A DNA stretch of 37,431 bases, taken from contig NZ_JADWYU010000110.1 in the NCBI RefSeq assembly GCF_016786325.1, positions 1 through 37,431 on the forward strand, given 5' to 3'. The first letter of the stretch is position 1; each line of letters begins with the position of its first letter. Source of the DNA: Frankia nepalensis. Its GTDB lineage: Bacteria; Actinomycetota; Actinomycetes; Frankiales; Frankiaceae. A program made the position numbers and the translations under genes. The notes beneath the pieces are model-generated. The model made no database searches. It worked only from the letters and a program-made list of their open reading frames with translations, and was not told the DNA's origin. This document shows, one piece after another, positions 4,287-33,442 of the stretch.

Positions 4287-6614
4287 GTGGCGGCGGGCGC
4301 GGCGGTGGGCGAACAGGACGGCTTCGCGGGCGACGGCGGTACGGCGGCGAGGGGACGGAGCCTGCCAGGCCTGCGCGTGGGCGTCGACACCGGCGGGACC
4401 TTCACGGACCTCGCGGCGATCGGGCCGGACGGGCAGACGCTGTTCGCGAAGGTGCCATCGGTTCCGTCGGACCCGTCCGTCGCGGTTCTCGCGGCGCTGG
4501 CTCGAGCCTTCCAGCGGATCTCCCCCGAGATCTCCCAGCAGACCCCCCAGATCGCTTACCCGCCGGATCGACGAGGTCGATCCGGCGGGGACCCTGTCGT
4601 CGATCCGGCGGGGACCCCGGGCTTCGCGGATCCGCCGGGAGCCCCAGGGGCCCTGAGCCCGCCGGGAACCGCGGCGACACCGGGTGGCCGGCGCGGCACG
4701 GGCCAGGACGACCCGGCCAGCCGGTGGGTCGAGCGGTTCGCGCACGGCACCACCGTCGCGACCAACGCGCTGCTGGAGCGGGCCGGTGCCAGGACGGCGC
4801 TGGTCACCACCCATGGGTTCCGCGACGTCATCGAGATCGGCCGGCAGAACCGGCCGTCGCTCTACGACCTGACCAGGGACCGGCCGGCGAGCCTGGTCCC
4901 GCGCGCGCTGCGGTTCACCGTGCGCGAGCGCTGCGGACCCGACGGCGTGCTGGTCGAGCTCACCGACGCCGAGATCGTCCGGGTCGTCGACGAGGTCGCG
5001 GCCGTGGGTGGTGTCGAGGCGGTCGCCGTCTGCCTGCTGTTCTCGTTCGCCTGGCCGGAGCACGAGCGGCGGCTCGCCGCCGGCCTGCGCGCCGGCCTGC
5101 CCGGGGTGACCGTCGTCGCCTCCAGCGAGGTGCTGCCCGCGTTCCGCGAGTACGAGCGGTTCGCGACGACCGCGGCGGACGCCTACCTGACGCCCAAGCT
5201 GTCGACGTACCTGACCAGGCTGGGTGGGCGGGCCGCCGCCGCGGGCGTCGGCGAGCCGCTCGTCATGCGGTCGTCCGGCGGGGTGGCCAGCCTCGCCGAG
5301 GCGGCCGCGCACGCCGCCACCTGCGTGCTGTCCGGCCCGGCCGGCGGCGTCGTGGGCGCCGCCTACGTCGCCGGCCTCTCCGGGGTGCGCGACCTGCTGA
5401 CCTTCGACATGGGCGGCACGTCGACCGACGTCGCGCCGGTCCTCGACGGCCGGGCGCTGACCACCTCCGAGTCGGTGGTGGCCGGTGTCCCGATCATGTT
5501 GCCGACCGTGGACGTGCACTCCGTGAGCGCCGGCGGCGGCTCGATCGCCTGGGTCGACTCCGGCGGCGCGCTGCGGGTCGGCCCGTCCTCCGCCGGCGCC
5601 GACCCCGGGCCCGCCTGCTACCAGCGCGGGGGGCGGGAGGCGACGGTGACCGACGCCGACCTGGCGCTGGGGTATCTCGGCGACGGCGCGAGCCTTGGTG
5701 GCAAGGTCACGCTGTCCGCCGCGGCGGCGACGGCGGCGCTCGAGCGGCTCGGCGCCCGCCTCGGCCTGACGGCGCTCGCGGCCGCCGCCGGGGTGGTCGC
5801 CGTCGCGGACGCCGAGATGACCCGCGCGCTGCGGGTCGTCTCCGTGGAGCGGGGGCTCGACCCGCGCGCGCTCGCGCTGGTGGCCTTCGGCGGGGCCGGC
5901 GGGACGCACGCCTGCGCGCTGGCCGAGGCGCTCGGGATGACGACCGTGCTGGTGCCCCGGGCGGCCGGGGTGCTCTCGGCGCTGGGGCTCGCGCTCGGTG
6001 ACGTGCGCCGTGACCACGCGGCGCCGTTGCGCGGCCGGCTCGGTGACGTCGACCTCGCCGGCGCGTTCGCCCGGCTCGCCGCCGAGGCCGCCTCGGCGGC
6101 CCGGGCGGCCGGCGCCGTCGGCGACGCCGGCGACCTGGTGCTGGAACGCCAGCTGGACTGCCGCTACGTCGGCCAGGCGCACGAACTGACGGTCTCCGCC
6201 GGTGCCGCCGGCGCGGGCGCCGGGAGCGAGCCGGCCGGCGGGGAGCCGTCGAACGAGACGCTGGCCGCCACCGCTCGGGCGGAGTTCGAGCGGGCGCACC
6301 TGCGCCGCTACGGCCACGTCGCGCCCGACCGGGACGTCGAGGTCGTCGCCGCGCGGCTCGTCGCCACGGTCCCCGGGCTGCGCCCGGCGCTCGCCGCCGA
6401 GCCCGCGGCCCTTGGCGCGCCCCGCGGCCGGCGCGAGGTCTTCCTGGACGGCGCCTGGCACGAGGTCGACGTCGTCGCCCGGGCCGCCCTCGGCCCCGGC
6501 GACGCGCTGGCCGGCCCGGCCGTCGTCGAGTTCGCCGAGGCGACCTGCCTCGTCCGTCCTGGCTGGTCCGCGCGCGTCGACGCGGTGGGCACGCTCACTC
6601 TTACGCGCGCGTGA
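4287..6614 (+). CDS. hyuA: Hydantoinase A / oxoprolinase family ATP-dependent amidohydrolase subunit
   Basis: 775 residues of the hydantoinase A/5-oxoprolinase family, which opens hydantoin or 5-oxoproline-type lactam rings using ATP. The actin-like ATPase phosphate-1 signature DTGGTFTD is at 34-41, HGTTVATN at 153-160, a second phosphate loop FDMGGTSTD at 373-381 and an AFGGAGG loop near 535. The C-terminal family domain ends the protein. Residues about 76-142 are a Pro/Gly/Asp-rich insertion between the first strand-helix unit and HGTTVATN, where I expect a short linker; it is encoded by a dispersed-repeat cluster. The partner subunit HyuB, usually adjacent, is absent: the next gene is convergent thiL. 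The start GTG at 4287 is chosen because the N-terminal motif follows about 30 residues later; later starts are possible. The substrate is unknown. Confidence 0.85.
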   Translation: MAAGAAVGEQDGFAGDGGTAARGRSLPGLRVGVDTGGTFTDLAAIGPDGQTLFAKVPSVPSDPSVAVLAALARAFQRISPEISQQTPQIAYPPDRRGRSGGDPVVDPAGTPGFADPPGAPGALSPPGTAATPGGRRGTGQDDPASRWVERFAHGTTVATNALLERAGARTALVTTHGFRDVIEIGRQNRPSLYDLTRDRPASLVPRALRFTVRERCGPDGVLVELTDAEIVRVVDEVAAVGGVEAVAVCLLFSFAWPEHERRLAAGLRAGLPGVTVVASSEVLPAFREYERFATTAADAYLTPKLSTYLTRLGGRAAAAGVGEPLVMRSSGGVASLAEAAAHAATCVLSGPAGGVVGAAYVAGLSGVRDLLTFDMGGTSTDVAPVLDGRALTTSESVVAGVPIMLPTVDVHSVSAGGGSIAWVDSGGALRVGPSSAGADPGPACYQRGGREATVTDADLALGYLGDGASLGGKVTLSAAAATAALERLGARLGLTALAAAAGVVAVADAEMTRALRVVSVERGLDPRALALVAFGGAGGTHACALAEALGMTTVLVPRAAGVLSALGLALGDVRRDHAAPLRGRLGDVDLAGAFARLAAEAASAARAAGAVGDAGDLVLERQLDCRYVGQAHELTVSAGAAGAGAGSEPAGGEPSNETLAATARAEFERAHLRRYGHVAPDRDVEVVAARLVATVPGLRPALAAEPAALGAPRGRREVFLDGAWHEVDVVARAALGPGDALAGPAVVEFAEATCLVRPGWSARVDAVGTLTLTRA
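4515..4675 (+). repeat. Dispersed GATCCGGCGGGRACCC repeat cluster A (inside hyuA)
   Basis: Two exact copies of the 16-mer GATCCGGCGGGGACCC start at 4579 and 4602. Around them are related GGATCCGCCGGGAGCCC-like and CTCCCAG modules. The cluster is translated in frame as part of the hyuA linker (residues about 76-142) without a stop. It is the same family as the clusters near 8815, 12255, 13145, 16550, 18305 and 33330. Confidence 0.8.
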
Positions 6615-6635
6615 GGGCGGGTGCCGGCGACCCGG

Positions 6636-6685
6636 GCCATGCGCCTCGGCGGGCCGATCGGCCATGCGCCTCGGCGGCCCGATCA
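6636..6685. repeat. Two-copy 25-bp direct tandem repeat
   Basis: GCCATGCGCCTCGGCGG begins at 6636 and again at 6661. The two 25-bp units differ at two positions near their ends. The repeat lies just after the hyuA stop codon in noncoding sequence, and no function is evident. Confidence 0.75.
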
Positions 6686-6805
6686 GCGGCGAATTAGGCT
6701 CAGTAAGGACTTTTGGCCCGTCGCCTCTCGCTGGGAACAGGCCGACTAGCTGCGCCGTTACCATGACAGTGCCGGCCCGCATCATGGCCCCCGGACCTAA
6801 AACAC

Positions 6806-6820
6806 GTCGCTACGAGCGAC
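6806..6820. terminator. Short hairpin between convergent genes
   Basis: GTCGCT (6806-6811) and AGCGAC (6815-6820) form a 6-bp stem with an ACG loop, located between the hyuA and thiL ends. No U-tract follows, as is common in high-GC actinobacteria, so the terminator role is only suggested by position. Confidence 0.3.
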
Positions 6821-6977
6821 CTTGCCCCGTGAGGCGACCTGGCGGGCCGGCATCTACTTCATCCTGTTGCTCGCCGCCCGCCGGGCGGCTTCCCGGGGAT
6901 CAGATGTCGCTCTGGGGTGTTCCCCGGGCCTCTGGACCCCGGCGTCGCGCCGCGCGCGGCCTTTGGATTCAGACCCG

Positions 6978-7928
6978 TCAACCACGCGGATAGTGGTCCC
7001 AGCCCTGAGCGCCGGCATAGGGGGCGCCGTCGACGACGACGCCCGAGCCCTCGGTCACCTCGCCGACGAGGCGGGTCCCGGGCGGCAGCGGGGCCGTGGG
7101 CGGCAGGCAGGCGACGAACGCGTTGTCGTCGCCACCGGTCAGCACCCAGCGCAGCGGGTCGGCGGCCAGCCGCTCGGCCGCCGCGCGCAGCGGCGCGGCG
7201 ACGTCGAGGGCCGCGGCGCGCAGCTCGACCCGGACACCGGACGCGGTGGCGACGTGGCCCACGTCGGCCAGCAGGCCGTCGCTGACGTCGCACATCGCGG
7301 TCGCGCCGGCGGCCGCCAGGGCCTGGCCGGCGGCGTACGGCGGGCTGGGGCGGCGGTGCGCGTCGAGCAGCTCGACCGGCCCGTCGGCGCCCGCGTCGAG
7401 CAGCTCGAGGCCGGCCTGCGCCCAGCCCAGGCGGCCGGCGAGCACCACCCGGTCACCCGGCCTGGCGCCCCCGCGCAGGACCGGCGCGGCGCCACCGAGG
7501 TCGCCCAGCGCGGTGATGGCGAGCAGCACCCGGTCGGCCGAGCTCACGTCGCCGCCGGCGACATACGCCCCGACCTCGGCGCACTCGTCGCGCAGCCCGT
7601 CCGCGAGCCGCAGCGCCCAGTCGACCGGCAGGTCGCCCGGCGCGGCGAAGCCGACCAGCAGGCCGGTCGGCCGGGCGCCCATCGCCACCACGTCGGAGAG
7701 GTTCTGCGCCGCCGCCTTGCGGCCGACGTCATACCCGGACGAGTAGTCGCGGCGGAAGTGCCGCCCCTCCAGCAGCAGGTCGGTGGTGGCCACGACCCGG
7801 CCGTCGGGCGCGGCCAGCAGGGCGGCATCGTCGCCGGGCCCCACCAGCAGCCCTTCGCCGCCCGGGAACCGGGCTGTGATCGCCCTGATCAGGCCGAACT
7901 CACCGAGATCGGCTAGATGGCCGGTCAT
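6978..7928 (-). CDS. thiL: Thiamine-monophosphate kinase
   Basis: 316 residues, the usual ThiL length. The enzyme phosphorylates thiamine monophosphate to thiamine diphosphate with ATP, the last step of cofactor synthesis. Family signatures in order: GPGDDAALL near 30 (metal/nucleotide binding), TTDLLLEGRHF near 47, a KAAAQNLSDVVAMGA helix that contacts ATP, AGGDVSS near 130, DVSDGLLADVGHV near 220, and a C-terminal LTGGDDNAF loop where many homologues read GEDY/GEDH. The ATG at 7928 fits because MTGHLADLGEFGLI is the normal ThiL start, although the reading frame stays open upstream for another 600 nt. The product is the cofactor used by Kgd, but the two genes are not in one operon. Confidence 0.93.
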   Translation of the reverse strand: MTGHLADLGEFGLIRAITARFPGGEGLLVGPGDDAALLAAPDGRVVATTDLLLEGRHFRRDYSSGYDVGRKAAAQNLSDVVAMGARPTGLLVGFAAPGDLPVDWALRLADGLRDECAEVGAYVAGGDVSSADRVLLAITALGDLGGAAPVLRGGARPGDRVVLAGRLGWAQAGLELLDAGADGPVELLDAHRRPSPPYAAGQALAAAGATAMCDVSDGLLADVGHVATASGVRVELRAAALDVAAPLRAAAERLAADPLRWVLTGGDDNAFVACLPPTAPLPPGTRLVGEVTEGSGVVVDGAPYAGAQGWDHYPRG

Positions 7929-8226
7929 TGGGAGACCGGTGGGGTGACGGACGGGGAGCCGGACGGTCGCACGCCGGAACTCTAGCGTCGCGCCGCGCCG
8001 CGGGTCATCCTGCGCCGATCGCGTACGGATTGTCAGAACATGCGGCGAATATCCCGACCACGGCGGAATGCGGACGCCGGGATTGCCAGAAGACGCTCCC
8101 CGCCGGCGGGGAGCGGCCGCGCGCGGAGGGCGCCGGCCGCGCACGGGAGCACCGGTGGCGAATTGGTCGCTCCGCCCCCGGATTTCCCGGACGTGTCGCG
8201 GGGCCTTTGGAATTCTTCGGGGTTCT

Positions 8227-8238
8227 TTCCCGCGGGAA
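8227..8238. promoter_or_regulatory. Perfect 12-bp palindrome TTCCCGCGGGAA
   Basis: TTCCCGCGGGAA equals its own reverse complement. It lies about 300 bp upstream of the thiL start and 625 bp upstream of the acetamidase start. This could be a regulator site or chance; no second copy was noticed nearby. Confidence 0.3.
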
Positions 8239-8549
8239 CCCGGCCCGAATGGCGCCGGGAGTTCGCCGATGGGCCCGGGTGATCGCCGCGGCCCCGGTGC
8301 GTGGCGAGGTCGCGAGCGGCCTGGGTCGGGTCGCTCGACGGGTTGGTCACCGGACCTGGTGGCCCCGACCGTAGCGGTAGGTGCGGCTGGGGTCGCGGCT
8401 CGCGTCCGGAGCGCGGCATCGGCTCGGCGCCTGGCGCGGGTCCGCCGGTGAGCGACCACGCCTCGCGACCGGCCGGCGGGGTTCGCCGCCGGCGCTCGGC
8501 TGGCGGCGCTGGTCGGGGGGCCGGCACGCCAGATCACCGAGGGGCCGAT

Positions 8550-8586
8550 GGAACCAAACTGTTCCGTGGTAAGGGCACCTTTGACG
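8550..8586 (+). promoter_or_regulatory. Operator-like repeat and possible -35 box upstream of acetamidase gene
   Basis: GGAAC (8550-8554) and GTTCC (8561-8565) form a perfect inverted repeat with a 6-nt spacer. A TTGACG hexamer follows at 8581-8586. No good -10 hexamer sits at 17-18 nt spacing (GGTGGAAT lies somewhat further), so this is only a candidate promoter. It is about 280 nt upstream of the acetamidase start. Confidence 0.3.
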
Positions 8587-8794
8587 CACGCGAGGCGGGG
8601 ACATGGTGGAATGCTGCCGATGGCAACCTCGCCGACATCTGGCCGTCATATCCCGCTGGGACTCTGACGCCCGTGCCGCTCGACATCCTCTGCCACCCCC
8701 CTCGTCTGGTGGCGCCGGTCGCGCGCGCCTCCAGTCCGAGCGCGTGCGCGCCTTCGCGAGAGGTCCAGGCCCCCTCGCCGGACGCCGGCCCGTA

Positions 8795-8845
8795 CCCGTC
8801 AGATCGGCGACGCCGATCCGGCGGGAACCCCGGGGCCGGGCCCAG
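8795..8845 (+). repeat. Dispersed repeat cluster B (upstream of acetamidase)
   Basis: GATCCGGCGGGAACCC starts at 8815, preceded by CAGATCGGCGACGCC, which resembles the left half of the cluster at 18305. The copy ends about 20 nt before the acetamidase GTG, so it would lie in the 5' leader of that gene. Confidence 0.75.
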
Positions 8846-8862
8846 GCGCGGGTAGGGCGCCG

Positions 8863-10752
8863 GTGGCACTGCAGCCAGGGAAGGGGAAGGTCGAGGGCAA
8901 GCACTACCTGCCGTCCACCCCGGAGACGGTCAGCTGGGGGGAGCTGCCGACCGCGCGCACCCGGCCGGTGCTGACCGTCGACACCGGGGCCACCCTCACC
9001 ATCGACACGGTCAGCCAGGAAGGCATCCTGGAGGACCAGGGCCGCGACCCGGACGCCTACTTCGGCCGCCACGGCGTCACCCCCGCCGAGGTGCTCGAGG
9101 ACGCCAGGGCGATCGCCGCCTCCGGTATCCCGCACCGCTTCGGCGTCGACGGCCCGCACGTCGTGACCGGGCCGGTGTTCGTGCGCGGCGCCGAGCCGGG
9201 TGACGTGCTGCGCGTCGAGGTCATGTCGCTGCTGCCGCGCGCCCGCTACGGGATCATCTCCAACCGGCACGGGCAGGGCCTGCTCGCCGGGGAGTTCCCC
9301 GAAGGCCCCCCGCCGGACGACGCCGCCGACTCCCGGCACTGGGAGAACTACCGCACGGTCAGCAGCTTCTGCGCGGTGGAGCGCCGGCGCGGCAAGCTGT
9401 TCGGCGCGCTCGACGCGGGGGGCGGCGCCCGCGTGCGCTTCCCGCTCGTCCCGTTCATGGGGATCATGGCCGTCGCCGTGGACCTTGGCGCGAACGGCGC
9501 CGAGGCGGACCTCGCCACCTCCGCCATTCCCTCCACCTCGGTCGGCCTGCACGGCGGCGCGCTGGACTGCCGGGAGCTGGGGGCCGGCTCCCGGCTCTAC
9601 CTGCCCGTGCAGGTCCCCGGGGCGCTGTTCGCCGTCGGCGACCCGCACTACGCGGCCGGGGACGGCAAGATCGGGCTCACCGCGCTCGAGGGCCCGCTGC
9701 GGGCCACCTTCCGGCTCACCACGCTGCGCGAGCCGGCCGCGCGGGCGGCCCTCGGCTCGCTGCGGGAGCCGTTCGTCGAGACCGACACCTACTGGCTCAC
9801 GATCGGGCTGGACGTCGACGTCACCGAAGCGGTGCGGCGGGCCGCCCGGTCGGCGGTGCTGTTCCTGTCCAGCCGGCTCGGCCTGGAACGCGCCGCCGCG
9901 CTGGCCTACCTGTCGGCCGCCGCCGACGTCGGGATCAGCCAGGTCGTCAACGGCGTCCACACCGCCTACTGCCGGATCCGCCGCGCGGACTTCCCCGATC
10001 AGGTGCCGGTCCGGCCGCGGCTGCCGCGTGCCTCGCTCGGCCGGCTGGTCAGCACCGGCGACGACCTCGAGGACGACGCGTTCGACCTGGACCCGCAGCC
10101 GGAGCCCGACGCGGCCGCCCGCGACGTCACCGGCCGCCACGGCGGCGGCCGAGGCCGCCCGGCCGGGGCGGCCCGCGACCGGGTACGCGCCGCTGGCGCC
10201 GATCAGGTCGACGTCGCCTCGGGCACCGGCGAGGCGGACGCCGCGTCCGGCGCCCAGTCCGAGGCCGCGTCCGGCGCCGCCCAGTCCGATGCCTCGTCCG
10301 GCGCCGCCCAGGCCGAGGCCGCGTCTGGCACCCAGGCCGATGCCTCGTCCGGCGTCGGCGAGGCGGATGCCGCGCCCGCCGAGCCAGCCGACGCCGTGCC
10401 CGCCGTCCGGGCCGGGTCTCGCGTCGGCGCCGCGCCCGGCGCCCGCGCCGCGTCCGCGCCCGGCGACGAGGACCGGCTCGCGGGCGACGGAGCCGAGGGC
10501 GACGAGCTCGATGGCGGCCGCCTCGACGAGGAGGGGCCTCTCGGCCAGGTCCCCCCGCGTGACCGGGACGGGCAGCGTGACCGGGACGGGCAGGGTGACC
10601 AGGACGGGCAGCGGGACGGGGACGGCGGCGAGTCGACTCACCCGGACGGGCCTGAGGCCGCCGCGCTCCCGACGCCGCCCACCCCGCGCGGCGCGCGCAA
10701 GGCGACCAGCGGCCGCCCCGTCCCCGGCCGGCCCGCCGGCGCCGGCCGCTGA
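8863..10752 (+). CDS. Acetamidase/formamidase family protein with long repetitive C-terminal tail
   Basis: 629 residues. Residues 1 to about 380 form a complete acetamidase/formamidase (FmdA/AmdA-type) domain, a family that hydrolyses short amides to ammonia and the acid. Recognisable pieces are GPVFVRGAEPGDVLRVEV near 104, PFMGIMAVA near 200, ATSAIPSTSVGLHGGALDCRE near 222 with the conserved GG, VPGALFAVGDPHYAAGDG near 250, and AYLSAAADVGISQVVNGVH near 347. After about residue 385 comes a roughly 245-residue low-complexity tail rich in Ala, Ser, Glu, Asp and Gln with two repeat types, then Asp/Gln/Arg-rich hexads. The tail is absent from ordinary family members and should be disordered. The start is GTG at 8863 behind a weak GGGTAGGG. 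The substrate is unknown. The gene converges on the helicase gene, 64 bp away. Confidence 0.85.
   Translation: MALQPGKGKVEGKHYLPSTPETVSWGELPTARTRPVLTVDTGATLTIDTVSQEGILEDQGRDPDAYFGRHGVTPAEVLEDARAIAASGIPHRFGVDGPHVVTGPVFVRGAEPGDVLRVEVMSLLPRARYGIISNRHGQGLLAGEFPEGPPPDDAADSRHWENYRTVSSFCAVERRRGKLFGALDAGGGARVRFPLVPFMGIMAVAVDLGANGAEADLATSAIPSTSVGLHGGALDCRELGAGSRLYLPVQVPGALFAVGDPHYAAGDGKIGLTALEGPLRATFRLTTLREPAARAALGSLREPFVETDTYWLTIGLDVDVTEAVRRAARSAVLFLSSRLGLERAAALAYLSAAADVGISQVVNGVHTAYCRIRRADFPDQVPVRPRLPRASLGRLVSTGDDLEDDAFDLDPQPEPDAAARDVTGRHGGGRGRPAGAARDRVRAAGADQVDVASGTGEADAASGAQSEAASGAAQSDASSGAAQAEAASGTQADASSGVGEADAAPAEPADAVPAVRAGSRVGAAPGARAASAPGDEDRLAGDGAEGDELDGGRLDEEGPLGQVPPRDRDGQRDRDGQGDQDGQRDGDGGESTHPDGPEAAALPTPPTPRGARKATSGRPVPGRPAGAGR
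10200..10390 (+). repeat. Degenerate coding repeat, ASG(A)xQxEAAS type
   Basis: About seven imperfect 8-10 residue units built from EADAASG, QSEAASGA, AQSDASSGA, AQAEAASG and QADASSG are encoded head to tail in the acetamidase tail. The DNA repeats as GCCTCGTCCGGCG-like words. This indicates expansion by slippage or unequal exchange. Confidence 0.8.
10558..10630 (+). repeat. 18-bp tandem repeat encoding RDRDGQ hexads
   Basis: Units start at 10558, 10576 and 10594, with a partial one at 10612. The first two are identical (CGTGACCGGGACGGGCAG) and the third differs at two bases. They encode acidic/basic hexapeptides near the C-terminus of the acetamidase-like protein. Confidence 0.85.
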
Positions 10753-10816
10753 CGGTCCCCGTCCACGAGCCGCTCGGACCGACCGCCTCGCCGCTTTCCG
10801 CCCCGACGCTCCCGCC

Positions 10817-13800
10817 CTACGCCAGGTCGTCGTCGAGGCCGTCGAGCTCGGACAGCGCGATCGGGGCCCAACGGCGGGTGACGTCGCCCGCCTCGGCGCG
10901 GACCGCCTCGGCCCGAGCGGCCAGGTTCAGCTCGTCGGTGGCCGGCGGCGGTGCCGACCAGCCCATGGTGGCCGCCGCGTCCTCGGCATCCGGGGGCATT
11001 TCGGCGGCCGGCCGTGGCGCGGTCGCGGCCATGCCGAGGGAGACGCCCGCGCCACCCGGCTGGCCGGGCGCCGCCTGGCCGCCGACGCCGGGCGTGCTGG
11101 CGGCGCCAGCGGCGCCGGAGGGGGCGATCCCGGCCGCGGCCAGCCGGGGCCACAGGCCGGCGAGGGCGGACGCCGGATCGCTTTCGAAGTCGGACTGGCG
11201 GATCCGCCAGAAGGGCCAGCCCGCGCGGCGCAGCTGACGTTCCCGGGCGAAGTCGTGGGCGACCTGCTCGGGGGTGCCGACCTCGTCGCCGTCGCACTCG
11301 ACGGCGAGCCGGGCCCGTCCGCCGGCCACCACCAGGTCGATCCGGCGGCCGTTCACCTCGACCTGCGGTGCCACCCGGTAGCCGGCGCGCACCAGCTCGC
11401 GGAACACCCGCTGCTCGAACAGCGAGTCGAAGCGCGGATGCGGGATGTCCGGGGCGACCTCGTCGAGCCGCGGCGGCTGGTCGGCGTCCGACCGCCCGGC
11501 GTGGCCGCGCGACAGCACGTAGCTCAGGTAGTTGTGCCGCAGGTCGCCGGGATCCAGGTCGTCCAGGTTCACCGAGTGGAACAGCCACACCTGGTCGCGG
11601 GCGCGCGAGGCGGCGACGTTGAACCGGCGCTGGTACTCCTGCCTGGTCAGCGCCATCGTCGGCGTGCCGGGCGCGACCACCATCGACAGGAACACCACGT
11701 CGCGCTCGTCGCCCTGGAAGTCCGGCGGCGTGCCGACCCGCAGCCGGCGGCGCTGCTGCTCGGCCGCCGACATCCGGGCGGCCAGCAGGGACCGGATCAG
11801 CTCGGCCTGCCCGCCGCCCTGCAGGACGACGACGCCGAACGAGGCGCCGTCGTGGCGGGGGTCGGCCGCGCTGGCGAGCACGTGGGAGACCAGTGCCTCC
11901 GCCTCGGCCGGGTTGCGCAGCGCGCCCGCCACGCCGGTGGTGTGGGCGTGCGGGACGTAGCGGGCGCGCAGCGGCGGCAGCCGGTCGGCGCCGAACTGGC
12001 GCAGCGGCACCAGCGGCGCGTCCCGGTAGAACATCGCCGACGACCACTCGATGATCTCCGGCATGCAGCGGAAGTGCTCGCGCAGCCGGATCACCTCGCC
12101 GAACCGGGTCCGCAGCAGGCTGAACAGGCTCGAGCGCGGGGTGAACGAGACGCGCAGCCAGCCCGGCAGGTCGGGCAGCAGCGCGTCGAGCCGGCGGAAC
12201 ACCTGGTCCAGCGCGTCGTCCTCGCCATCGGCGCCGAGCCCACCGGCCCCGGCGCCCCTGCCTGATCCGAGGTCCCCACCCGGTGGGCGAAGTCGATCTG
12301 GCAGGCCCGCTGGGAGGTCCGCGGCGGGCTTGGCCGAGGTGACCGGCAGGGCCACCGGAGGGGTGCACTGGCGGTCGTCGCCCACGATGATCACCCTGGG
12401 GGCGAGCCAGAGCAGGAACAGGCTGTCCAGGCCCGCCTGGCTGCCCTCGTCGACGATCACGACGTCGAAGCTGTCGCGCACCGCGGGGATCGTGGCGAGC
12501 ACCTCGGCGATCGGCATCACCCAGGCGGGCACCGCCGTCTGGGCGAGCGCCATGGCCTCACGCGCGGCCTGCCGGTAGCGCTCGGCGTGCCGGCCGGCGA
12601 GCCGTCCGCCGGCGGCGACGGCGTCCGCGTAGGCGCGCAGCGCGGCCGACTCGCGGGTACCCATCCGCTCCAGGCAGTGCCGCCACGCCTTCGCCCCGGC
12701 GAGCTCGGCGGTGGCGGCGCCGACCGCGTCCTCGGCCGCGTCGAGCTGGGTGTCGAGGTCCCCGACTCCGAGCCCTCCGACCTGGAGGCCCCCGACTTCG
12801 AGGCCCCCGGTGGTGCCGTCGGCGGCGCGGCGGGCCGCGTCGGCGTCGGCGAGCCAGCCGGCGGCCAGCGCCCAGGCCCACGCCTCGTCGAACCGGTCCA
12901 GCCGCCGCCGCCAGCCATCGTGGTCCGGCTCGGCCAGGCCGGCGGCGGCGACCAGCAGGTCCGCCAGCCCAGGGTGGGCGCGCGTCAGCCGGTCGAGCAG
13001 CTCGGCGCGGCGGGCGGACGCCTGGCGGGCGGCGAGCGCGTCGAGCAGGGCCAGCCGGGCGGTCCGGTAGCCGGCGAGGTCGCGGGTGGCGAGCGCCCCG
13101 GCGACCCGGCGCAGCTCGGCGGCCGGGGCGCCCGGTTCGCGGACCCGCTGGTGGATCTCCCAGCTCGCCGACCTCCCAGATCCGCTTCGCGGATCCGGCA
13201 GGAACCCTGCCGCGGACCGGGCGGAGACTCCGGATCCGGCGGGAACCGCGGGCCGCGCCGGTCCGTCGGCCTCCCAGATCGCCGGCCTTCCGGGCCGCCG
13301 GTCTGGTGGGAACCCCGTCCCCGATCCGGCGGGAGCCCCGGCGGCGGCGCGCAGGCTCGCTCCCAGCCGGTCGATCTCGTCGCTGGCGGCGGTGGCCGCG
13401 AGCCGCCGCCGGGCGAGCTCCACCGCGCCGGACAGGTCGCGCAGCGCCGCCGCCGAGCCGAGGTCGACGATCTCCGTGTCGCCGTACGCGCCCACGGGGT
13501 TGTCCCGGTCGCGCGCGGCGGCCATCAGCACGGCGCGGATCCGGTCGCGCGCGGCGACGACGGTGGCGACGACGGCGAGCGCGTCGCGCGCCTCGGTCAG
13601 CCGGGCGAGCCGGACCTCCGGCGGCGGCGGCGCGGCTTCGCCGGCCACGTCGCCCGGCTCGCCGGGTGATCCGCCGGGCGGGCCGCCGAACCCGACGGGA
13701 ACACCCGCGAGCGCCCACGCGCGGGCGGCGGCGTCGAGCGCCGCCTCGGCCCGCAGCCGGATCAGCACCAGGTCCAGCAGCTCCGGCGTCGTCGGCGCCA

Positions 13801-16486: not shown

Positions 16487-16514
16487 CCCGCCGGCGGCGC
16501 GGGAGAATGTCCTT

Positions 16515-16547: not shown

Positions 16548-16760
16548 GGGCGCGGATCCGCCGGATCGCGGACCTCCCAGCAGACCTCCCGGGTCGGCCT
16601 CGCCGATCCGGCGGGGACCCCGGGCCTGTGGACCCGCCCGATCGGCTCAGCCGATCCGGCGGGGACCTCGGACCCGGCGGGGACCCGTCGTCGAGCTGGC
16701 GGGGACTCGACCTCCCGGCAGGGACCCCGGGCTTCGCTGATTCGGGCAGGAACCCCGGGT
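16548..16760 (+). repeat. Dispersed repeat cluster D (upstream of EndoQ-UvrD gene)
   Basis: GATCCGGCGGGGACCC starts at 16605 and a one-base variant at 16653. Further diverged units carry GGCGGGGACC, CTCCCAGCAGACCTCCC and CCCGGGCTTCGC. The cluster ends only about 16 nt before the chosen start of the EndoQ-UvrD gene. Confidence 0.8.
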
Positions 16761-16776: not shown

Positions 16777-20604
<3,828 letters not shown>

Positions 20605-23456: not shown

Positions 23457-23538
23457 TCTTCCCGGATAGTAATCCGCCTGCGCAGGATCCCCGTCCGAAT
23501 GGCCAGACGTGCGGACCGAGGCCGGAAGGTGACGGTAT

Positions 23539-27992: not shown

Positions 27993-29492
27993 TCATCGCC
28001 GGATGGGCTCGGTGGGGCGGCTGTCACCTCGCTGGCCCCAGCGTCCCGCCGTCCCGTCCGCGGTCGTGATGACCGGCGAGGCCGCGGCGGGCGGACCCGA
28101 AGCCGTGACGGCCGCGAGGCCGTCCGGTCCGGCGGCGGCGCCGTCGCGACCGGCGGCGCGCCGGTCGGAATGGTGCAGCCGGTAGACGAGCCAGCCGGCG
28201 ACGGCGGCGGTCCCGGCCAGGCAGGCCAGGGCCGCCGCCGCGGTGCGCTCGATCGCGCCGCCGGCGAGGGCGAGGCCGGCGCCGGTCAGCGCCGAACAGA
28301 CGAAGAGCGCCACGACGATCACGCGTTGGTTCGCGCCCAGCAGGTAGGTGGCGAACATCATGGCGACCGCCATGAACGTCATCGCGAGCGCGAGTACCCA
28401 CAACGAGCCGGCGGCCGCCGTCAGGTCCGGGCCGAACACCAACGTCAGCAGCGGTTTGGCGCCGACGAGCCCGACCAGGGTGAGCACGAGCCCTGGCGCG
28501 ATGACGCAGCCGACCGCCATCGCCAGCGCCCGGCCCGCCGGCTGGCCCTCCTTGCGCCGTCGCGCCGCTTCGGGCAGCAGGAAGTTCGCGACCGCCAGCC
28601 CGGTGTACACGGGCACCTTGCAGGCCGTCGAGATCGCCGCGTAGGCGCCCACCGCGTCCGGGTTGCGCCAGCCGACGATCACGACGTCCATGTTCTGCAG
28701 CAGCGCCAGCGGGACGAGGGTGCCGAACGCGATCGAGGCGTCCGTGATCAGGCTGTCCCTGGTTCGTCGCCGAGGCGGCGGCAGCATCGGGACCGGGCCG
28801 GTGGTGGTGGCCGAAGCCAGCGCGGCGTCGAGGCGGGGCCGCGACCTCGGGCGCGGTGGCCGGGGCAGCGCCGGGGTGCGGGCGACCGCCCAGCGGGTCT
28901 GCTCGGCGCCCACCGCTATGGACAGCGCCAGCCCCAGCCCGGCCCCGTTGACCCCGAGCCCGGCGGCGACCAGCGCGACCCCGAAGCCGATCCGCAGCGC
29001 GGCCTCGAACACGAGGCTGATGGCCAGCGCGGGGTAGTTGCCGCGGGCCTGGAGCAGGCCGCGTTCCACGTAGAGGGGCACCAGGAACGCCGCCGCGATC
29101 GCGGCCTCGGCGATCGCCAGCGGGTGCGGGTAGGACAGCAGCGCCGCGACCGGCCGGCACAGCGCGACCGCGATCACGGAGGAGACCGCGATCGCGGCGA
29201 ACGTGACCCCGCGCAGCTGGCGGATCCAGGCGCGTCGCTCGCGGCGGGTCTCGCCGATCAGCGCCGACTCCCGATGGACCACGGCGGTGAGCACGGCCGT
29301 CCCGACGACCGAAAGAATCATGAAGATATTGGTCTGGACGACGACGGCGCCATAGGCGTCCGGGTCGAGCATCCGGGCGAGCGCCAGGTTCATCAGCAGG
29401 TTGAAGACGTTGACGACCATGCCCGCCGCGGCGAGAGCCATCGGGCCACGCAGCAGCTCGGCGACAAGGTCCCGCTTCACCGACAGCGCCAT
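27993..29492 (-). CDS. Polysaccharide biosynthesis/flippase-like (MATE/MOP superfamily) membrane protein
   Basis: 499 residues from ATG 29492, chosen because GGAGAGG lies just upstream; an in-frame start at 29537 lacks this. The protein has about 12-14 hydrophobic segments. The N-terminus reads LRGPMALAAAGMVVNVFNLLMNLALARMLDPDAYGAVV, split here as LRGPMALAAAGMVVNVF and NLLMNLALARMLDPDAYG, which is the classic opening of Wzx-type lipid-linked oligosaccharide flippases. A long hydrophilic cytoplasmic loop (about 210-245, Pro/Arg-rich) divides two six-helix halves, and the C-terminus is a disordered Ala/Gly/Pro tail. Its location next to aftD and a methyltransferase suggests it moves a glycan precursor across the membrane. 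The substrate cannot be read from sequence. Confidence 0.8.
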   Translation of the reverse strand: MALSVKRDLVAELLRGPMALAAAGMVVNVFNLLMNLALARMLDPDAYGAVVVQTNIFMILSVVGTAVLTAVVHRESALIGETRRERRAWIRQLRGVTFAAIAVSSVIAVALCRPVAALLSYPHPLAIAEAAIAAAFLVPLYVERGLLQARGNYPALAISLVFEAALRIGFGVALVAAGLGVNGAGLGLALSIAVGAEQTRWAVARTPALPRPPRPRSRPRLDAALASATTTGPVPMLPPPRRRTRDSLITDASIAFGTLVPLALLQNMDVVIVGWRNPDAVGAYAAISTACKVPVYTGLAVANFLLPEAARRRKEGQPAGRALAMAVGCVIAPGLVLTLVGLVGAKPLLTLVFGPDLTAAAGSLWVLALAMTFMAVAMMFATYLLGANQRVIVVALFVCSALTGAGLALAGGAIERTAAAALACLAGTAAVAGWLVYRLHHSDRRAAGRDGAAAGPDGLAAVTASGPPAAASPVITTADGTAGRWGQRGDSRPTEPIRR

Positions 29493-29832
29493 CGACCTCT
29501 CCGTAGGGCGGTCAGGCGCTTTTGCGCGGCCTGGCACCGGCCCAGCGGCGTGGCGATCCCGCCAGCCGGACTCGACGGGCTCATCGAGCGGCCTGACCCG
29601 TCATCACCGATGACACAGAGGACCCCCGAAAGCTGGCGACGGCTGATCCGGCCGGCCGGGACCGCCAGGCACGTCGACGGTTTCCGTGGAAGTTCGCCGA
29701 GGTGGTGCCCACACCGAGCGCAAGGTGCCCTGGCCGCCGGTCATCCGGATGGTCCCAGACAGTTTCCCGTGGCCTTACCCACCGCTCAAGTAAACCAGCT
29801 ATCGTCCGCCGGGTACCTGGCCGCGGCGGCGA
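29493..29832. other. Gap between methyltransferase and flippase genes, with hairpin
   Basis: 340 bp, no supportable gene. GTCATC (29600-29605) and GATGAC (29609-29614) form a 6-bp stem with an ACC loop. It could terminate the upstream methyltransferase transcript or act as an operator for the flippase gene 108 nt away. The stretch 29755-29810 is AT-richer and holds a TTTACTTGAGC word on the minus strand, a possible but weak promoter. Confidence 0.4.
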
Positions 29833-30657
29833 TCAGATCTTGCGAAGAATCAGCAGGAGATTCCAGGTGAGAACCTCGCGCACCCCCGGCACCTTCAAAA
29901 TCGGCTTGGACCAGTCCGGCAGGTATCGCGGAAGCGCGTCGATGACGACGACGTCCTGCCGGGAGCGAGCCCAGGCCAGGGTGTCGGCGACATACACGGG
30001 GAACATGGTCTCGCCGTAGATGTTCTTGGGCGGCACCCCGTTGCGCCGCTCGTAGCGGGCCTGCGCCCGGCGGCCGCCCAGGTAGTGCCACGGCGCGGTC
30101 TCGTGCCCGCCCCACGGCGACAGCCAGGTGCAGTAGCTCAGGTAGATGAGTCCGCCGGGGCGGGTCACCCGGACCAGTTCGGAGGACATCTGCCAGGCGT
30201 CCGGCACATGCTCCAGCACGTTCGACGTGTAGCAGATGTCCACCGAGTCGGTGCGCACCGGCAGCGCGAGCGCGCTGCCCCGGATCCGGCCGGGAACATC
30301 GGTGACCGCCAGCTCGGACACGTCCGGCTCGACCCAGCAGTAGCGGGCGCCGGCCTCTAGGAACGCGTCCCGGAAATGGCCCGGGCCACCGCCGACGTCG
30401 AGCACCGACTGGCCGGCGACCGAGGTGTAGCGGGACAGCTGGCGGACCGAGTCCGCGGCGATGAGCTGATAGAAGCTGGCCGGCGGGTCGACGGGCTTCT
30501 TGCGGTGCTCGGAGAAGAGCGTCCAGGAACGACGCAGGCCCCAGCCGACGTATGGCACGGAGGGCAGCGCGACCGCGCGTGGCCGTGCCGGTTCCGGCGT
30601 CGGCTCGGCCGTCGACGCCGTGGTGGCCGGTAGCGAATCCGGGGCCAGGTCAACCAT
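29833..30657 (-). CDS. Class I SAM-dependent methyltransferase (Methyltransf_11 type)
   Basis: 274 residues. Motif I is VLDVGGGPGHF (85-95), the strand-2 acid is in VEPDVSEL (near 111), SALALPVRTDSVDICYTSNVLEHVPDAW spans about 128-155 and RVTRPGGLIYLSYCTW about 163-178. The first 30 residues are disordered. The middle and C-terminus (GGHETAPWHYLGG, KNIYGETMF, EVLTWNLLLILRKI) recall a mycobacterial methyltransferase family (Rv0224c type, from memory) found in the broader aftD neighbourhood. With aftD and the flippase gene downstream, a role in modifying a surface glycan or lipid is plausible inference. The ATG at 30657 is the first start after the long divergent region. Confidence 0.85.
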   Translation of the reverse strand: MVDLAPDSLPATTASTAEPTPEPARPRAVALPSVPYVGWGLRRSWTLFSEHRKKPVDPPASFYQLIAADSVRQLSRYTSVAGQSVLDVGGGPGHFRDAFLEAGARYCWVEPDVSELAVTDVPGRIRGSALALPVRTDSVDICYTSNVLEHVPDAWQMSSELVRVTRPGGLIYLSYCTWLSPWGGHETAPWHYLGGRRAQARYERRNGVPPKNIYGETMFPVYVADTLAWARSRQDVVVIDALPRYLPDWSKPILKVPGVREVLTWNLLLILRKI

Positions 30658-30956
30658 AGGCGGACCCTAACACCCCGTCCGAGAGCGCCAACGTGACGGG
30701 CGGGCCCCCCAGGAGCCGCCGCGGGAGGCATCCCGGCGCCCGGCCAAGGAATTCGGCCGCCGCGGGAGTCCCTGTGGGACCGACCTCACACCGGTGCCCC
30801 GAACCGGCGACCCGCGGGCCCGCCCGGCTCGTCGACGGGTCGAGCCCGTCGGTCGTCGTTCCTGGCCGGCGCCGCGGCCGTGGCCGCCGCGCCGTGTCGG
30901 GTTGGTGCCGGTCCGGTTCTCGCTGAATATCTATGGACGGCTATGTCCCTCTTCGC

Positions 30957-30969
30957 TATTGTCGCAATA
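30957..30969. promoter_or_regulatory. Short inverted repeat TATTG-TCG-CAATA
   Basis: A perfect 5-bp inverted repeat with a 3-nt centre in the AT-rich block, 13 nt upstream of the TTGACT box. Possible regulator half-sites; on the minus strand the same block contains a TTGCGA word that could serve the divergent methyltransferase gene. Confidence 0.35.
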
Positions 30970-30981
30970 CTGAGCGTCCGA

Positions 30982-31010
30982 TTGACTCAGATCACCGAAG
31001 GATCTGAATA
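30982..31010 (+). promoter_or_regulatory. Candidate promoter with overlapping operator for the PLP enzyme
   Basis: TTGACT (30982-30987) is a good -35 box; at 17 nt spacing lies TGAATA (31005-31010), a weak -10. Filling the spacer exactly is a 7-bp perfect inverted repeat, TCAGATC (30987-30993) and GATCTGA (31001-31007), separated by 7 nt. A repressor dimer bound there would block RNA polymerase. The leader to the first GTG would be roughly 55-60 nt. Confidence 0.45.
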
Positions 31011-31072
31011 GCCCCGTCCCGCGAGACGATCCACTCACGCGTGCCGGGCCGCGAAGGTCTGGGTACTGGGGG

Positions 31073-32416
31073 GTGGTCGTGGTGGTGTCCGTGGACGCGG
31101 TCGGCTCGGTGCCGACCCCGGCCCCGTTCTCGGCTCGGCACCGGCGGCTGGCGCCGGCTTTCGACCACGTGCTGGCGCAGCCGCCGGGCGGGCTCGCCGA
31201 GATGCACCGGCTGCGCGGGCGGGTGCCGTTCTGGGACCCGGTCATCGACGAGATCGACGGCCGCCGGATCCGGGTGGGCGACCACTGGCTCATCGACTTC
31301 GCGTCCTGCAACTATCTCGGGCTCGACCTCGAGCCCGAGATCATGGCCGCGGTGCCCGAGTACCTCGCCCGCTGGGGGACCCATCCGAGCTGGTGCCGGC
31401 TGGTCGGCAACCCGCGGCTGTTCACCGAGCTCGAGCAGGCTCTCGCCGAACTGCTGGGCGCCGAGGACACCTTGCTGTTCCCCACGGTCAGCCACATCCA
31501 CTTCTCCGTGCTGCCCGCGCTGGCCGGGGCCGGCGCGGTGTTCGTCGAGCTGCGCGCGCACCACACGATCCACGAGGGCGCCCGGATGGCCTCGACGCGC
31601 GGGGCGCGCGTCATCCGGTTCCGCGAGGAGAACCTGCCGGGGCTTGCCCGCAAGCTGGCGGCGAGCGACCGCAACCCCAAGGTCATCTGCGTGGACGGCG
31701 TGAACAGCATGACGGGCAACGGCCCGCCGCTGGCCGAGCTGACCGAGCTGGCCCGGGCCTACGACGCGCTGCTCTACATCGACGACGCGCACGGCTTCGG
31801 GGTGCTGGGCGAGCGGTCCGCCGACGAGCTGTCGCCGTACGGGTCCCGGGGCAACGGCACCGTCCGGCACCTCGGCGGCGATTACGACGGTCTGGTGCTC
31901 GTCGGCGGCCTTTCCAAGGCGTATTCGTCGCTGCTGGCGTTCGTCGCCTGCCCACCGGAAATCAGGCATTTCCTGCGAATCGCGGCGGGGCCCTATACCT
32001 ATTCTGGTCCTCCGCCGGTGGCGTCGTTCGCGACCGCCCAGGCGGGCCTGCGATTCAACGCCATTCGCGGCGACGTCCGCAGAGCCGACCTGTACCGGCG
32101 GACGTCGCGGGTGCTCGACGGCATCCATGCACTGGGCCTGGAAACCCGCAACGAGACTGGTTTCCCGATCATCGAGGTCCCGCTGGCCGACCCGGATCTG
32201 ATCGAACCGCTCGGGACCTTCCTGTTCAACCGGGGCATCCTCGCGACCATGGTGCCGTATCCGATCGTGCCTCGCCGCGAGACCGGCTTCCGGATCTCGG
32301 TGACGGCCGCCAACACCGACGCCGAGATCGAGGAGCTGTTGCGCGTCATCGCGGCGGCGGCCGACCGCTTCCCGCTGCGGCGGGCCGCCGACGGCCCGGA
32401 AACAGGCGACGGGTAG
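31073..32416 (+). CDS. Alpha-oxoamine synthase-like PLP-dependent enzyme (class I/II aminotransferase fold)
   Basis: 447 residues, fold type I PLP enzyme. DFASCNYLGLDLEP (near 85) matches the opening of the family that condenses acyl-CoA or acyl-ACP with an amino acid (BioF, KBL, serine palmitoyltransferase, autoinducer synthases). The PLP-anchoring Asp and His are in YIDDAHGFGVLG (D237, H240) and the Schiff-base lysine is K282 in GGLSKAYSS. Unlike typical members, the usual SRLxxG substrate motif reads SWCRLVGNPRLFTELE, and the SGYxAN loop is FPTVSHIHFS. This suggests an unusual acyl or amino substrate. It stands alone: no biotin, heme or sphingolipid genes are adjacent. Several GTG codons (31073-31093) could be the start. 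It is probably controlled by the operator-like repeat upstream. The product is unknown; a lipid or signal molecule is speculation. Confidence 0.78.
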   Translation: MVVVVSVDAVGSVPTPAPFSARHRRLAPAFDHVLAQPPGGLAEMHRLRGRVPFWDPVIDEIDGRRIRVGDHWLIDFASCNYLGLDLEPEIMAAVPEYLARWGTHPSWCRLVGNPRLFTELEQALAELLGAEDTLLFPTVSHIHFSVLPALAGAGAVFVELRAHHTIHEGARMASTRGARVIRFREENLPGLARKLAASDRNPKVICVDGVNSMTGNGPPLAELTELARAYDALLYIDDAHGFGVLGERSADELSPYGSRGNGTVRHLGGDYDGLVLVGGLSKAYSSLLAFVACPPEIRHFLRIAAGPYTYSGPPPVASFATAQAGLRFNAIRGDVRRADLYRRTSRVLDGIHALGLETRNETGFPIIEVPLADPDLIEPLGTFLFNRGILATMVPYPIVPRRETGFRISVTAANTDAEIEELLRVIAAAADRFPLRRAADGPETGDG

Positions 32417-32461
32417 CCACGCGGGTGGACCTGGCCGCCGGCCCGGCGCGCCTGGCTACCC
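32411..32461. terminator. Bidirectional terminator-like inverted repeat containing both stop codons
   Basis: GGGTAGCCA (32411-32419) and TGGCTACCC (32453-32461) are perfect 9-bp complements. The left arm includes the TAG stop of the PLP enzyme (32414-32416). The right arm includes, on the minus strand, the TAG stop of aat (32456-32458). The 33-nt interior is GC-rich and can pair further. Convergent position and symmetry argue for a shared terminator. Confidence 0.6.
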
Positions 32462-33442
32462 AGTGCGTGGGGCGGCCAGCCGCGCGACCGGGAGCTGGTC
32501 GGTGACCAGCCGCACGTCGGCGTCGCGGACCGCCCGCAGTGTCGCCAGATACGCGCCGCGGGGTATCTCCACGGCGCCCAGGCCGCGCAGGTGGTCGGTC
32601 GCGATCTGGACGTCGATCAGGCTGCCGCCGGCCGCCGTGAACCGGGCGTCGAGGTCGAGCAGCGCCACCTTGGAGGCGTCCGTGCGCGCGTGGAACATCG
32701 ACTCGCCGACGTGGACCCCGCCGACCAGGATCCCGAACTGGCCGCCGACGAGTTCCTCGCCGTCCCACACCTCGACGCTGTGCGCCCAGCCGAGCGTGTG
32801 CAGCCGGGCATAACCCGCCCGGAGCTCGTCGGTGATCCAGACCTCCGGGCCCGTCCGCCGGCAGCGCGCCACGACCTCGTCGAAGCAGCGGTTCACGGTG
32901 GTGGTCCAGCCGCACGACCGGACCCGCCGACGCAGCGACGCGGACGCGCGCACCCCGCCGGCCGGGATCACCGCGCGCGGCTGGGGGCACCACCACGGCA
33001 GATCGCCGGGCCTCGGCCGACGCCCGTGGAGCAGCCCGACGCGCGCGCCCGCCGCGAGGAGGTGGAGCACCAGGCGGTGCATGCCGACGACGGCCGTCAC
33101 GTCCTCGCTGGGCCAGGGGAACGCCCCGGCGCGGTAGGCGCCGATCAGTGTCTCGGGGGTGGGCCGCCCGCCCACCGCCACCGGCGCGTCCGCCGGCGCC
33201 GCCTCCAGCGCCAGGTCGTCCCACCAGGACGGCCCGGGCGGATCGGGGCGCGCGGTGAGGCCCGCGATCTCCTGGCGGCCCTCCCGGCTCGGCTCCCGGC
33301 CCTCCCCGGCCGCCTTCGCCGGTTCGGCGGGCACGCCGGATCCGGTGGGCACGCTGGATCCGGCGGGGCCCCCGGGCTTCGCCGGTTCGGCGGGAGCCCC
33401 GCCGAACCGCCCGCGCGCGGCGTCGTCGTCGCCGGACGTCAC
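32456..33442 (-). CDS. aat: Leucyl/phenylalanyl-tRNA--protein transferase
   Basis: 328 residues. Aat moves Leu or Phe from charged tRNA to N-terminal Arg/Lys of proteins, marking them for ClpS-ClpAP/ClpCP degradation (N-degron pathway, cytoplasm). Family signatures: LIGAYRAGAFPW near 96, WWCPQPRAVIP near 145, the GNAT-like core WITDELRAGYARLHTLGWAHSVEVWDGEELVGG (WITDELRAGY near 204, GWAHSVEVWDGEELVGG near 219) and VGESMFHARTDASKVAL near 245. The first 85 or so residues exceed the family norm by about 50; they are Pro/Gly/Glu-rich and encoded by dispersed-repeat cluster F. The GTG at 33442 is 10 nt after the stop of the GGDEF-EAL gene, with AAGG just upstream, so the two genes are probably co-transcribed. 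Confidence 0.93.
   Translation of the reverse strand: MTSGDDDAARGRFGGAPAEPAKPGGPAGSSVPTGSGVPAEPAKAAGEGREPSREGRQEIAGLTARPDPPGPSWWDDLALEAAPADAPVAVGGRPTPETLIGAYRAGAFPWPSEDVTAVVGMHRLVLHLLAAGARVGLLHGRRPRPGDLPWWCPQPRAVIPAGGVRASASLRRRVRSCGWTTTVNRCFDEVVARCRRTGPEVWITDELRAGYARLHTLGWAHSVEVWDGEELVGGQFGILVGGVHVGESMFHARTDASKVALLDLDARFTAAGGSLIDVQIATDHLRGLGAVEIPRGAYLATLRAVRDADVRLVTDQLPVARLAAPRTG
33330..33412. repeat. Dispersed repeat cluster F (inside aat N-terminus)
   Basis: On the plus strand GATCCGGTGGGCACGC starts at 33339, GATCCGGCGGGGCCCC at 33357 and GGTTCGGCGGGAGCCC at 33384, with CCCGGGCTTCGCC between, matching clusters A and D. aat runs on the minus strand and reads it as PAEPAKPGGPAGSSVPTGSG-type sequence in frame. 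Confidence 0.75.

What the first reader, a model, noticed from the sequence alone, without database searches (positions are those of the whole stretch)
4515..33412. A dispersed GATCCGGCGGGRACCC repeat family invades genes in frame, in both orientations
Seen: the 16-mer core GATCCGGCGGGGACCC occurs exactly at 4579, 4602 and 16605. One- to three-base variants are at 8815, 13192, 13233, 13323, 16653, 33357 and others, often next to CTCCCAGATC/CTCCCAGCAG and CCCGGGCTTCGC modules. Clusters sit between genes (8795, 16548) and inside hyuA, both giant helicase genes (three clusters) and aat, always in a predicted linker or N-terminal extension and never breaking the frame, whichever strand the host gene uses. 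Inference: a small mobile or recombining element that is stop-free in many frames, comparable in effect to the Rickettsia palindromic elements that insert into coding genes. I do not know a described element with this core.
Basis: partly seen in the sequence, partly recalled or inferred. Interest (0 to 1): 0.78.

Follow-up and report, generated by a model that had tools for sequence, protein, structure and literature searches.

The report
Self-nesting mobile hairpins in Pseudofrankia genomes
A tiny DNA hairpin has spread through the genomes of a group of soil bacteria, landing between genes, inside a tRNA gene, inside copies of itself and, usually in steps of 13 codons, inside protein genes whose reading frame it keeps.

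Summary
The 16-mer is one arm of a dispersed imperfect hairpin (body 37 nt). Cores within one mismatch number 225 in the window's genome and 403 in one relative; the reversed pattern gives 0-2. It is frequent in 7 of 8 genomes of the genus (Pseudofrankia) and in Candidatus Frankia californiensis, low or near background elsewhere in the family. The hyuA and large-helicase inserts are absent from every relative covering them. All 10 copies with coding sequence on both sides on one strand keep the frame; genes are hit about 4-8 times less often than random positions.

New here: many long copies are hairpins inserted inside hairpins. Spacings of 68 of 101 nesting levels sum to 39 (shuffles: mean 29, maximum 43), and arrays with equal arms have modal lengths 37, 76, 115 and 154. 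At two positions of a longer repeat, filled and empty copies differ by 3 nt swapped for 42, net 39 nt or 13 codons. One copy splits a tRNA gene that is intact in three relatives. No RAYT transposase was found in the seven genomes. The mobilising enzyme is unknown.

The parts
4521..4670 (+). Element cluster inside hyuA, in frame. Its core 4530-4644 is a three-level nested hairpin: left units at 4530, 4542, 4558 and right units at 4579, 4602, 4629; spacings 12+27 and 16+23, 115 nt in all
   Evidence: absent in 5 of 5 relatives that cover it
8794..8830 (+). Single 37-nt hairpin between genes
   Evidence: no clear copy at the place in 6 relatives (single 3-mismatch core matches in G030 and G033)
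12256..12323 (-). Degenerate inverted copy inside the large helicase gene
   Evidence: inverted repeats I1 and I2 to the 16.6-kb cluster; the stretch is about 75 nt longer than in G030
13155..13338 (+). Element cluster inside the minus-strand helicase gene, in frame
   Evidence: covariance-model hit 13170-13208; absent in 7 relatives
16572..16755 (+). Intergenic element cluster between the two helicase genes
   Evidence: no core in G029, G031, G033; G032 (six cores) and G030 (one degenerate copy) have copies in the opposite orientation in the same intergenic stretch
18310..18369 (+). Degenerate element in the linker of the UvrD-like helicase gene
   Evidence: 283-313 nt here against 108-184 nt in G029, G030 and G032; no core in 6 relatives
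33279..33399 (+). Element cluster at the 5' end of the aat reading frame: N-terminal extension or upstream region
   Evidence: no core in G029, G030, G031, G033; G032 has one in the opposite orientation
4287..6614 (+). Host gene: hydantoinase/oxoprolinase (hyuA type)
   Evidence: PF01968, PF05378
10817..16336 (-). Host gene: AAA_11/AAA_12 helicase with MTES_1575 nuclease domain
   Evidence: PF13086, PF13087, PF18741
16759..20604 (+). Host gene: UvrD-like helicase
   Evidence: PF00580, PF13361
32456..33442 (-). Host gene: aat, leucyl/phenylalanyl-tRNA-protein transferase
   Evidence: PF03588

Best explanation
This is a family of non-autonomous mobile hairpins. The basic unit is a 37-nt imperfect palindrome between NNG and YG. 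Shown at two positions of a longer repeat: where the element is present, [NNG-37 nt-YG] stands in place of 3 nt, a net gain of 39 nt (13 codons). Shown by unit counts, spacings and lengths: a unit can insert into another unit at four points of its 5' arm and loop, each event adding 39 nt, so many arrays grew from the inside as L(n)-loop-R(n); tandem copying of one arm adds to this. Because 39 is a multiple of three and the 37-nt body has no stop in any of the six frames, an insertion into a gene often keeps the frame; copies that harm a gene are purged. Inferred: the target is folded (hairpin) nucleic acid, and an enzyme acting in trans reads the hairpin; it is not a RAYT/IS200-type Y1 transposase.
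For: Dispersed family. Polymorphism: hyuA and helicase inserts; tRNA-Gly(tcc) gene of G032 split by a three-level copy (119 nt against 3 nt in G028), intact in G028, G030 and G000; copies present in one and absent in the other of G032/G028, both ways; an AgB1.9 copy missing in 5 relatives. Hairpin kept by compensatory change: 466 of 602 cells Watson-Crick against 377 (maximum 397) in 300 shuffles; 3 pairs changed on both sides, 99.6% of cells paired. Nesting: n and m correlate (Spearman 0.64, 177 elements); 68 of 101 levels sum to 39 (shuffled mean 29, maximum 43 of 5000); modal lengths 37/76/115/154; paired spacer scars. Three-nt replacement. Frame: 10 of 10; body open in six frames. No Y1_Tnp in 7 of 7 genomes with 22-403 cores.
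Against: 64 of 177 elements have unequal arms, 33 of 101 levels do not sum to 39 and 47 of 113 equal arrays miss the predicted length; the G032 cluster at the 16.6-kb place has six right units, mostly 23 apart, against two recognised left ones, so tandem copying of one arm also occurs. Inner right units are less diverged than the next (0.67 against 1.08 mismatches, p=0.02) but left units are not (p=0.27). The tRNA site loses 4 nt, not 3; two G032/G028 cases are off by a base or more. Inverted repeats in the flanks, expected for hairpin targets, are only weakly enriched (3 of 300 shuffles reach the value, 9 of 300 after removing similar flanks). The filled/empty pairs are copies of a repeat, not one locus in two strains. 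With the CTG..TG ends one of six frames has a stop. Composites may move as units, so recurring scars are not all independent.
Confidence: 0.75

Rival explanations
1. Ordinary REP/BIME elements moved by a RAYT (Y1 HUH) transposase, now lost or unseen.
For: Short imperfect palindromes, arrays of units, mostly intergenic, sometimes in genes, as reported for REPs.
Against: Y1_Tnp is not found in the 7 genomes of the genus with 22-403 cores, three of them in one or two contigs, and is found in the genus member with 1 core. The one Y1_Tnp of G023 has no right-arm match with up to 3 mismatches in its 2.4-kb locus, part of which is masked; of 10 RAYT loci scanned, 3 have single or double 3-mismatch right-arm matches and none an array. 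No GTAG or CGTC tag at the ends.
Confidence: 0.1
2. A MITE of a DNA transposon with terminal inverted repeats and target-site duplication.
For: Small non-coding mobile repeat with inverted arms. Among 56 single-unit copies the flanking dinucleotides are equal in 12 against 8.2 expected (18 of 2000 shuffles reach it), though the five TG/TG cases among them are copies of one repeat.
Against: Over all 171 centres equal dinucleotides are 49 against 45 expected (405 of 2000 shuffles); the two resolved positions lose 3 nt and the original bases are not duplicated; the body is one hairpin with a 3-nt loop.
Confidence: 0.11
3. Tandem slippage or recombination within pre-existing repeats, without transposition.
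For: 64 of 177 elements have unequal arms; a G028 site with one hairpin is an array in G032; right-arm arrays in G032.
Against: New sites appear in a tRNA gene and in conserved genes of single lineages; left and right spacings are coupled to 39, which slippage of one arm would not give.
Confidence: 0.07
4. Functional sites (protein binding or transcription termination) kept by selection, not mobile DNA.
For: Stable hairpin with compensatory changes.
Against: No fixed place relative to genes (14 at 3' and 13 at 5' sides in G000), present inside genes and a tRNA, copy number 1 to 403 among eight members of one genus.
Confidence: 0.04

Closest known systems
Rickettsia palindromic elements (RPE), as described in PMC3733652
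   Same: Palindromic, dispersed, many inserted in frame in genes likely to encode functional proteins
   Different: Different sequence and phylum; a 3-nt replacement, 39-nt step and self-nesting were not seen in the passages read (RPE papers themselves were not read)
REP elements (GTAG and CGTC superfamilies) and BIMEs, PMC3733652
   Same: Short imperfect hairpins, mostly intergenic, some within ORFs including repair helicases; CGTC family without transposase association
   Different: No GTAG/CGTC tag, no RAYT found in the genomes of the genus that are rich in it, growth by insertion into the hairpin itself rather than by dimers
GC clusters (GC42) of yeast mitochondrial DNA, PMC4478555
   Same: 42-nt palindrome, copy-number variation between strains, structure under constraint, merger and shuffling of units, amplification mechanism unsettled
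   Different: Organelle; putative AG target-site duplication instead of a 3-nt loss; nesting arithmetic not in the passages read
Repetitive hairpin-forming elements of sponge mitochondria, PMC2800124
   Same: Hairpin repeats that invade genomes, double and multiple hairpins, copies in rRNA genes
   Different: Organelle, tandem rather than nested hairpins in the passages read

Membership tests
REP elements of RAYT/REPtron systems | Y1 (PF01797) RAYT gene in the genome | tested here: not met
   0 of 7 genomes of the genus with 22-403 cores; search rings in E. coli and 4 other controls; G023 outside the genus has one
REP elements of RAYT/REPtron systems | GTAG or CGTC tetranucleotide tag at one end of the stem-loop | tested here: not met
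   Flanking dinucleotides and arms of 171 centres; alignment A2 of 20 copies
REP elements of RAYT/REPtron systems | Short imperfect palindrome in many mainly intergenic copies | tested here: met
Rickettsia palindromic elements | Palindrome inserted in frame within protein genes | tested here: met
   function of the proteins not tested
Rickettsia palindromic elements | Sequence similarity to an RPE family | not tested
   No RPE sequence was at hand; the strict hairpin pattern hit only Frankiaceae in genome contigs
MITE | Target-site duplication | tested here: not met
   No duplication at the two resolved positions; flanking dinucleotides equal 49 of 171 against 45 expected, 12 of 56 against 8.2 in single units
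MITE | Parent transposon with the same ends | tested here: inconclusive
Integron attC sites | Integron integrase in the genome | tested here: not met
   TIGR02249: 0 of 8 genomes over cut-off; weaker matches in 8 of 8 and in all 14 controls
Known structured RNA | Match to an Rfam family at gathering score | tested here: not met
   0 matches in the window plus 4 loci

The most novel reading that the evidence does not exclude
A new mode of mobility: a hairpin that inserts into hairpins (its own, other palindromic repeats, a tRNA anticodon arm), putting itself in the place of 3 nt. It would be carried by an enzyme that reads folded single-stranded DNA or RNA and is none of the known hairpin transposases, perhaps by insertion at the RNA level followed by copying back. 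Its 39-nt step makes it a natural generator of 13-codon protein inserts.
Probability: 0.25. Interest if true: 0.85.

Novelty: new variant of a known kind. Interest (0 to 1): 0.62.

Why it matters
Small palindromes that enter genes in frame are known from Rickettsia; how they insert is, as far as I recall, not known. This family has hundreds of copies, members of its genus at 77-95% identity with filled and empty sites, and a sharp insertion rule (3 nt out, 42 in; self-nesting in 39-nt steps). That makes the mechanism testable and offers a natural source of 13-codon insertions in proteins.

Tried and rejected
RAYT-driven REP: PF01797 not found in the rich genomes of the genus; RAYT loci of the family have no right-arm arrays. 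Y2 transposase PF04986: 0 of 8, but the control set was silent too, so absence is not shown. Integron integrase: none over cut-off. Rfam: none in 5 sources. Target-site duplication: not supported over all copies, a weak excess in single units. Genes linked to the element: of 570 called genes 130 lie near elements, and the only family of 3 or more members has 1 of 4 near; the crude gene caller under-calls. Hairpin targets judged from flanks: weak. The first unit-divergence test used unequal filters, and searches counted some elements from two centres; one search replaces their numbers. One search used a pattern with an off-by-one error and found nothing; one search is the correct scan. Literature: the listings of searches showed no description of this element; only open-licence PMC papers are held, and supplements were not read.
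Full report
Setting. The window lies on contig C377 of a 10.7-Mb genome (G000). Of the 8 genomes held for its genus, G032 is Pseudofrankia sp. BMG5.36 (matching contig lengths) and G033 is Frankia sp. AgB1.9 (100% identity). G023, of another genus of the family (g7), is Candidatus Frankia californiensis Dd1 (contig length). The readings of g7 as Protofrankia, g2 as Frankia and g6 as Parafrankia are recalled and come from no call.

Observation. The core occurs as described: 19 matches with up to 3 mismatches against 4.95 expected, and 180 in the genome with up to 1 mismatch against 0 for the reversed pattern. With GATCCGGCRGGRACCC, up to 1 mismatch, the counts in the genus (G000, G028-G034) are 225, 106, 22, 112, 46, 403, 28 and 1; in g7 G023 has 54 and G024 15; the other 25 of 35 genomes of the family have 1-10, with controls of 0-2.

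Anatomy. The unit is ACCTCCCAGATC-GGCTTCGCC-GATCCGGCRGGRACCC, an imperfect hairpin with an A.C and a C.C mismatch in the consensus (some copies pair there) that folds as drawn as DNA. The right arm is the more constant one. Stem pairs co-vary, for example GATCGGC/GCCGATC, GATCGAC/GTCGATC, GATCTGC/GCAGATC, GATTGGC/GCCAATC. Of 602 cells in 86 distinct centres, 466 are Watson-Crick, against 377 on average and 397 at most in 300 shuffles (some chance matches are among the 86). In alignment A2 of 20 chosen copies, 99.6% of cells pair and 3 pairs change on both sides, which no shuffle of 500 reaches.

Mobility. hyuA: about 50 residues absent in 5 of 5 relatives that cover it. Large helicase: 62 residues absent over all columns in 6 of 7; the DNA alignment shows all 7 without it. 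The core of the hyuA insert (4530-4644) is a three-level nested hairpin of exactly 115 nt. In G032 a three-level copy splits a tRNA-Gly gene after the anticodon loop: ARAGORN finds tRNA-Gly(tcc) intact at this place in G028, G030 and G000 and not in G032. G032 and G028 (91.8% identical) differ in copies in both directions, and one G028 site with a single hairpin is an array in G032. A copy of AgB1.9 is missing at the same place in G029, G030, G032, G028 and G000, though that intergenic stretch is too divergent to fix the ends. Against a simple picture, two window places are also occupied elsewhere: the 16.6-kb intergenic place has six cores in G032 and a degenerate copy in G030, and the aat 5' place has a core in G032, all in the opposite orientation to the window's. 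I read these as separate insertions into tolerant places.

Nesting. In 177 elements with a unique centre, left and right unit numbers correlate (Spearman 0.64, p = 6e-22); they are equal in 113. Equal arrays have modal lengths 37 (47 of 80), 76 (14 of 20), 115 (3 of 8) and 154 (2 of 4), as predicted by 37 + 39k; 66 of 113 are exact, and the one five-level array has 186 instead of 193. For 101 nesting levels the left spacing plus the right spacing is 39 in 68, against a shuffled mean of 29.3 and maximum of 43 in 5000. The pairs (16,23), (21,18) and (15,24), and (12,27) as in hyuA, are insertions after nt 13, 18, 12 and 9 of the 37-mer, each replacing 3 nt. The sequence scars are coupled the same way, for example GATCACG[..]CGTCCGCCGATC and GATCGCTG[..]TGTCGCCGATC. 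Units of 35 nt give a step of 37, seen as (12,25). In 64 of 177 the arms are unequal, and the G032 cluster at the 16.6-kb place has six right units against two recognised left ones, so one arm can also grow by tandem copying. Copies come from several genomes and some may be orthologous or may have moved as composites, so these counts are not independent events.

Insertion rule. A longer repeat of G032 is found with and without the element at two positions: GGGCGCTGAGC-GCC-CTCCCC becomes GGGCGCTGAGC-[CTG..37..TG]-CTCCCC, and GTGGCTGG-GTT-GGC becomes GTGGCTGG-[CAG..37..CG]-GGC. Three nt go, 42 come, net 39. These are paralogous copies, not one locus in two strains. The tRNA site loses 4 nt. Duplication of flanking bases is not seen over all 171 centres (49 equal dinucleotides, 45 expected); in 56 single units there are 12 against 8.2, of which the five TG/TG cases belong to one repeat. 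The first position and the tRNA site lie on the 3' side of a hairpin, and own-unit targets lie in its 5' arm and loop, hence the inference of folded targets; inverted repeats in other flanks are only weakly enriched.

Genes. Of 99 elements with both flanks (51 in G000, 48 in G032; 18 lone cores and 9 at stretch ends were set aside), 10 have coding sequence of one strand on both sides: all 10 are in frame and free of stops. Random positions fall in that class in 49.6% and 49.3% of cases, against 13.7% and 6.3% of elements, so gene insertions are depleted. A net gain of 39 nt explains why survivors can keep the frame: 65 of 80 single units have a length that gives a multiple of three, and the 37-nt body has no stop in six frames, though the CTG..TG ends add one stop in one frame and the hyuA core has one stop in one of the frames not used.

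Mechanism. The enzyme is unknown. RAYT is not found in the seven rich genomes of the genus at the sensitivity of PF01797. No gene family recurs beside the elements in the fetched 0.98 Mb. I take trans-mobilisation by a hairpin-reading enzyme as most likely, without evidence on its class.

Papers. PMC3733652: passages and the section on genome distribution read; intragenic REPs and RPEs are described there and the words Frankia, actinobacteria and Streptomyces do not occur in its main text. PMC4478555, PMC2800124, PMC2770080, PMC6735867 and PMC4447401: passages only. PMC4447401 analysed palindromic repeats of Frankia genomes in a supplementary table that I did not read.

Noticed in passing
e.g. 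G032:C3:18749-18769, G030:C1:255933-255953; seen near L161 7800 and L163 19700: A second dispersed palindrome, GCGAAGRAAGATCATTTTCGC: 182 copies in G032, 35 in G030, 21 in G028, 8 in G000, none in the other 31 of 35 family genomes (up to 2 mismatches; control 0).
   Followed up: partly
L148, L150, L158, L162, L163, L205 (G032): A longer dispersed repeat of roughly 200 bp (GTCGGGCGCTGAGCGCCCTCCCCGCGTGGTTCCGGGCCCTGGCATATGGCGG...GCGCTGATGCGCCGTCACC) that carries the hairpin at two positions in some copies and not in others.
   Followed up: partly
L151 2197-5145 (G032:C11) and the matching loci L279, L280, L281: A dense array of 21 tRNA genes (20-22 in the stretches of three relatives); the tRNA-Gly(tcc) gene within it is split by the hairpin in G032.
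   Followed up: partly
window 16.3-16.8 kb and 33.26-33.5 kb against L106 15026-15185 and L107 13553: The same intergenic or 5' places hold copies of opposite orientation in G032 (and G030 for the first): tolerant places hit more than once.
   Followed up: partly
window 37244-37431: A 77-nt stretch repeated exactly at 111-nt spacing at the window's end.
   Followed up: no
window 10204-10405: Coding repeats of about 24-27 nt (GCCGCGTCCGGCGCCCAGTCC type), unrelated to the hairpin.
   Followed up: no
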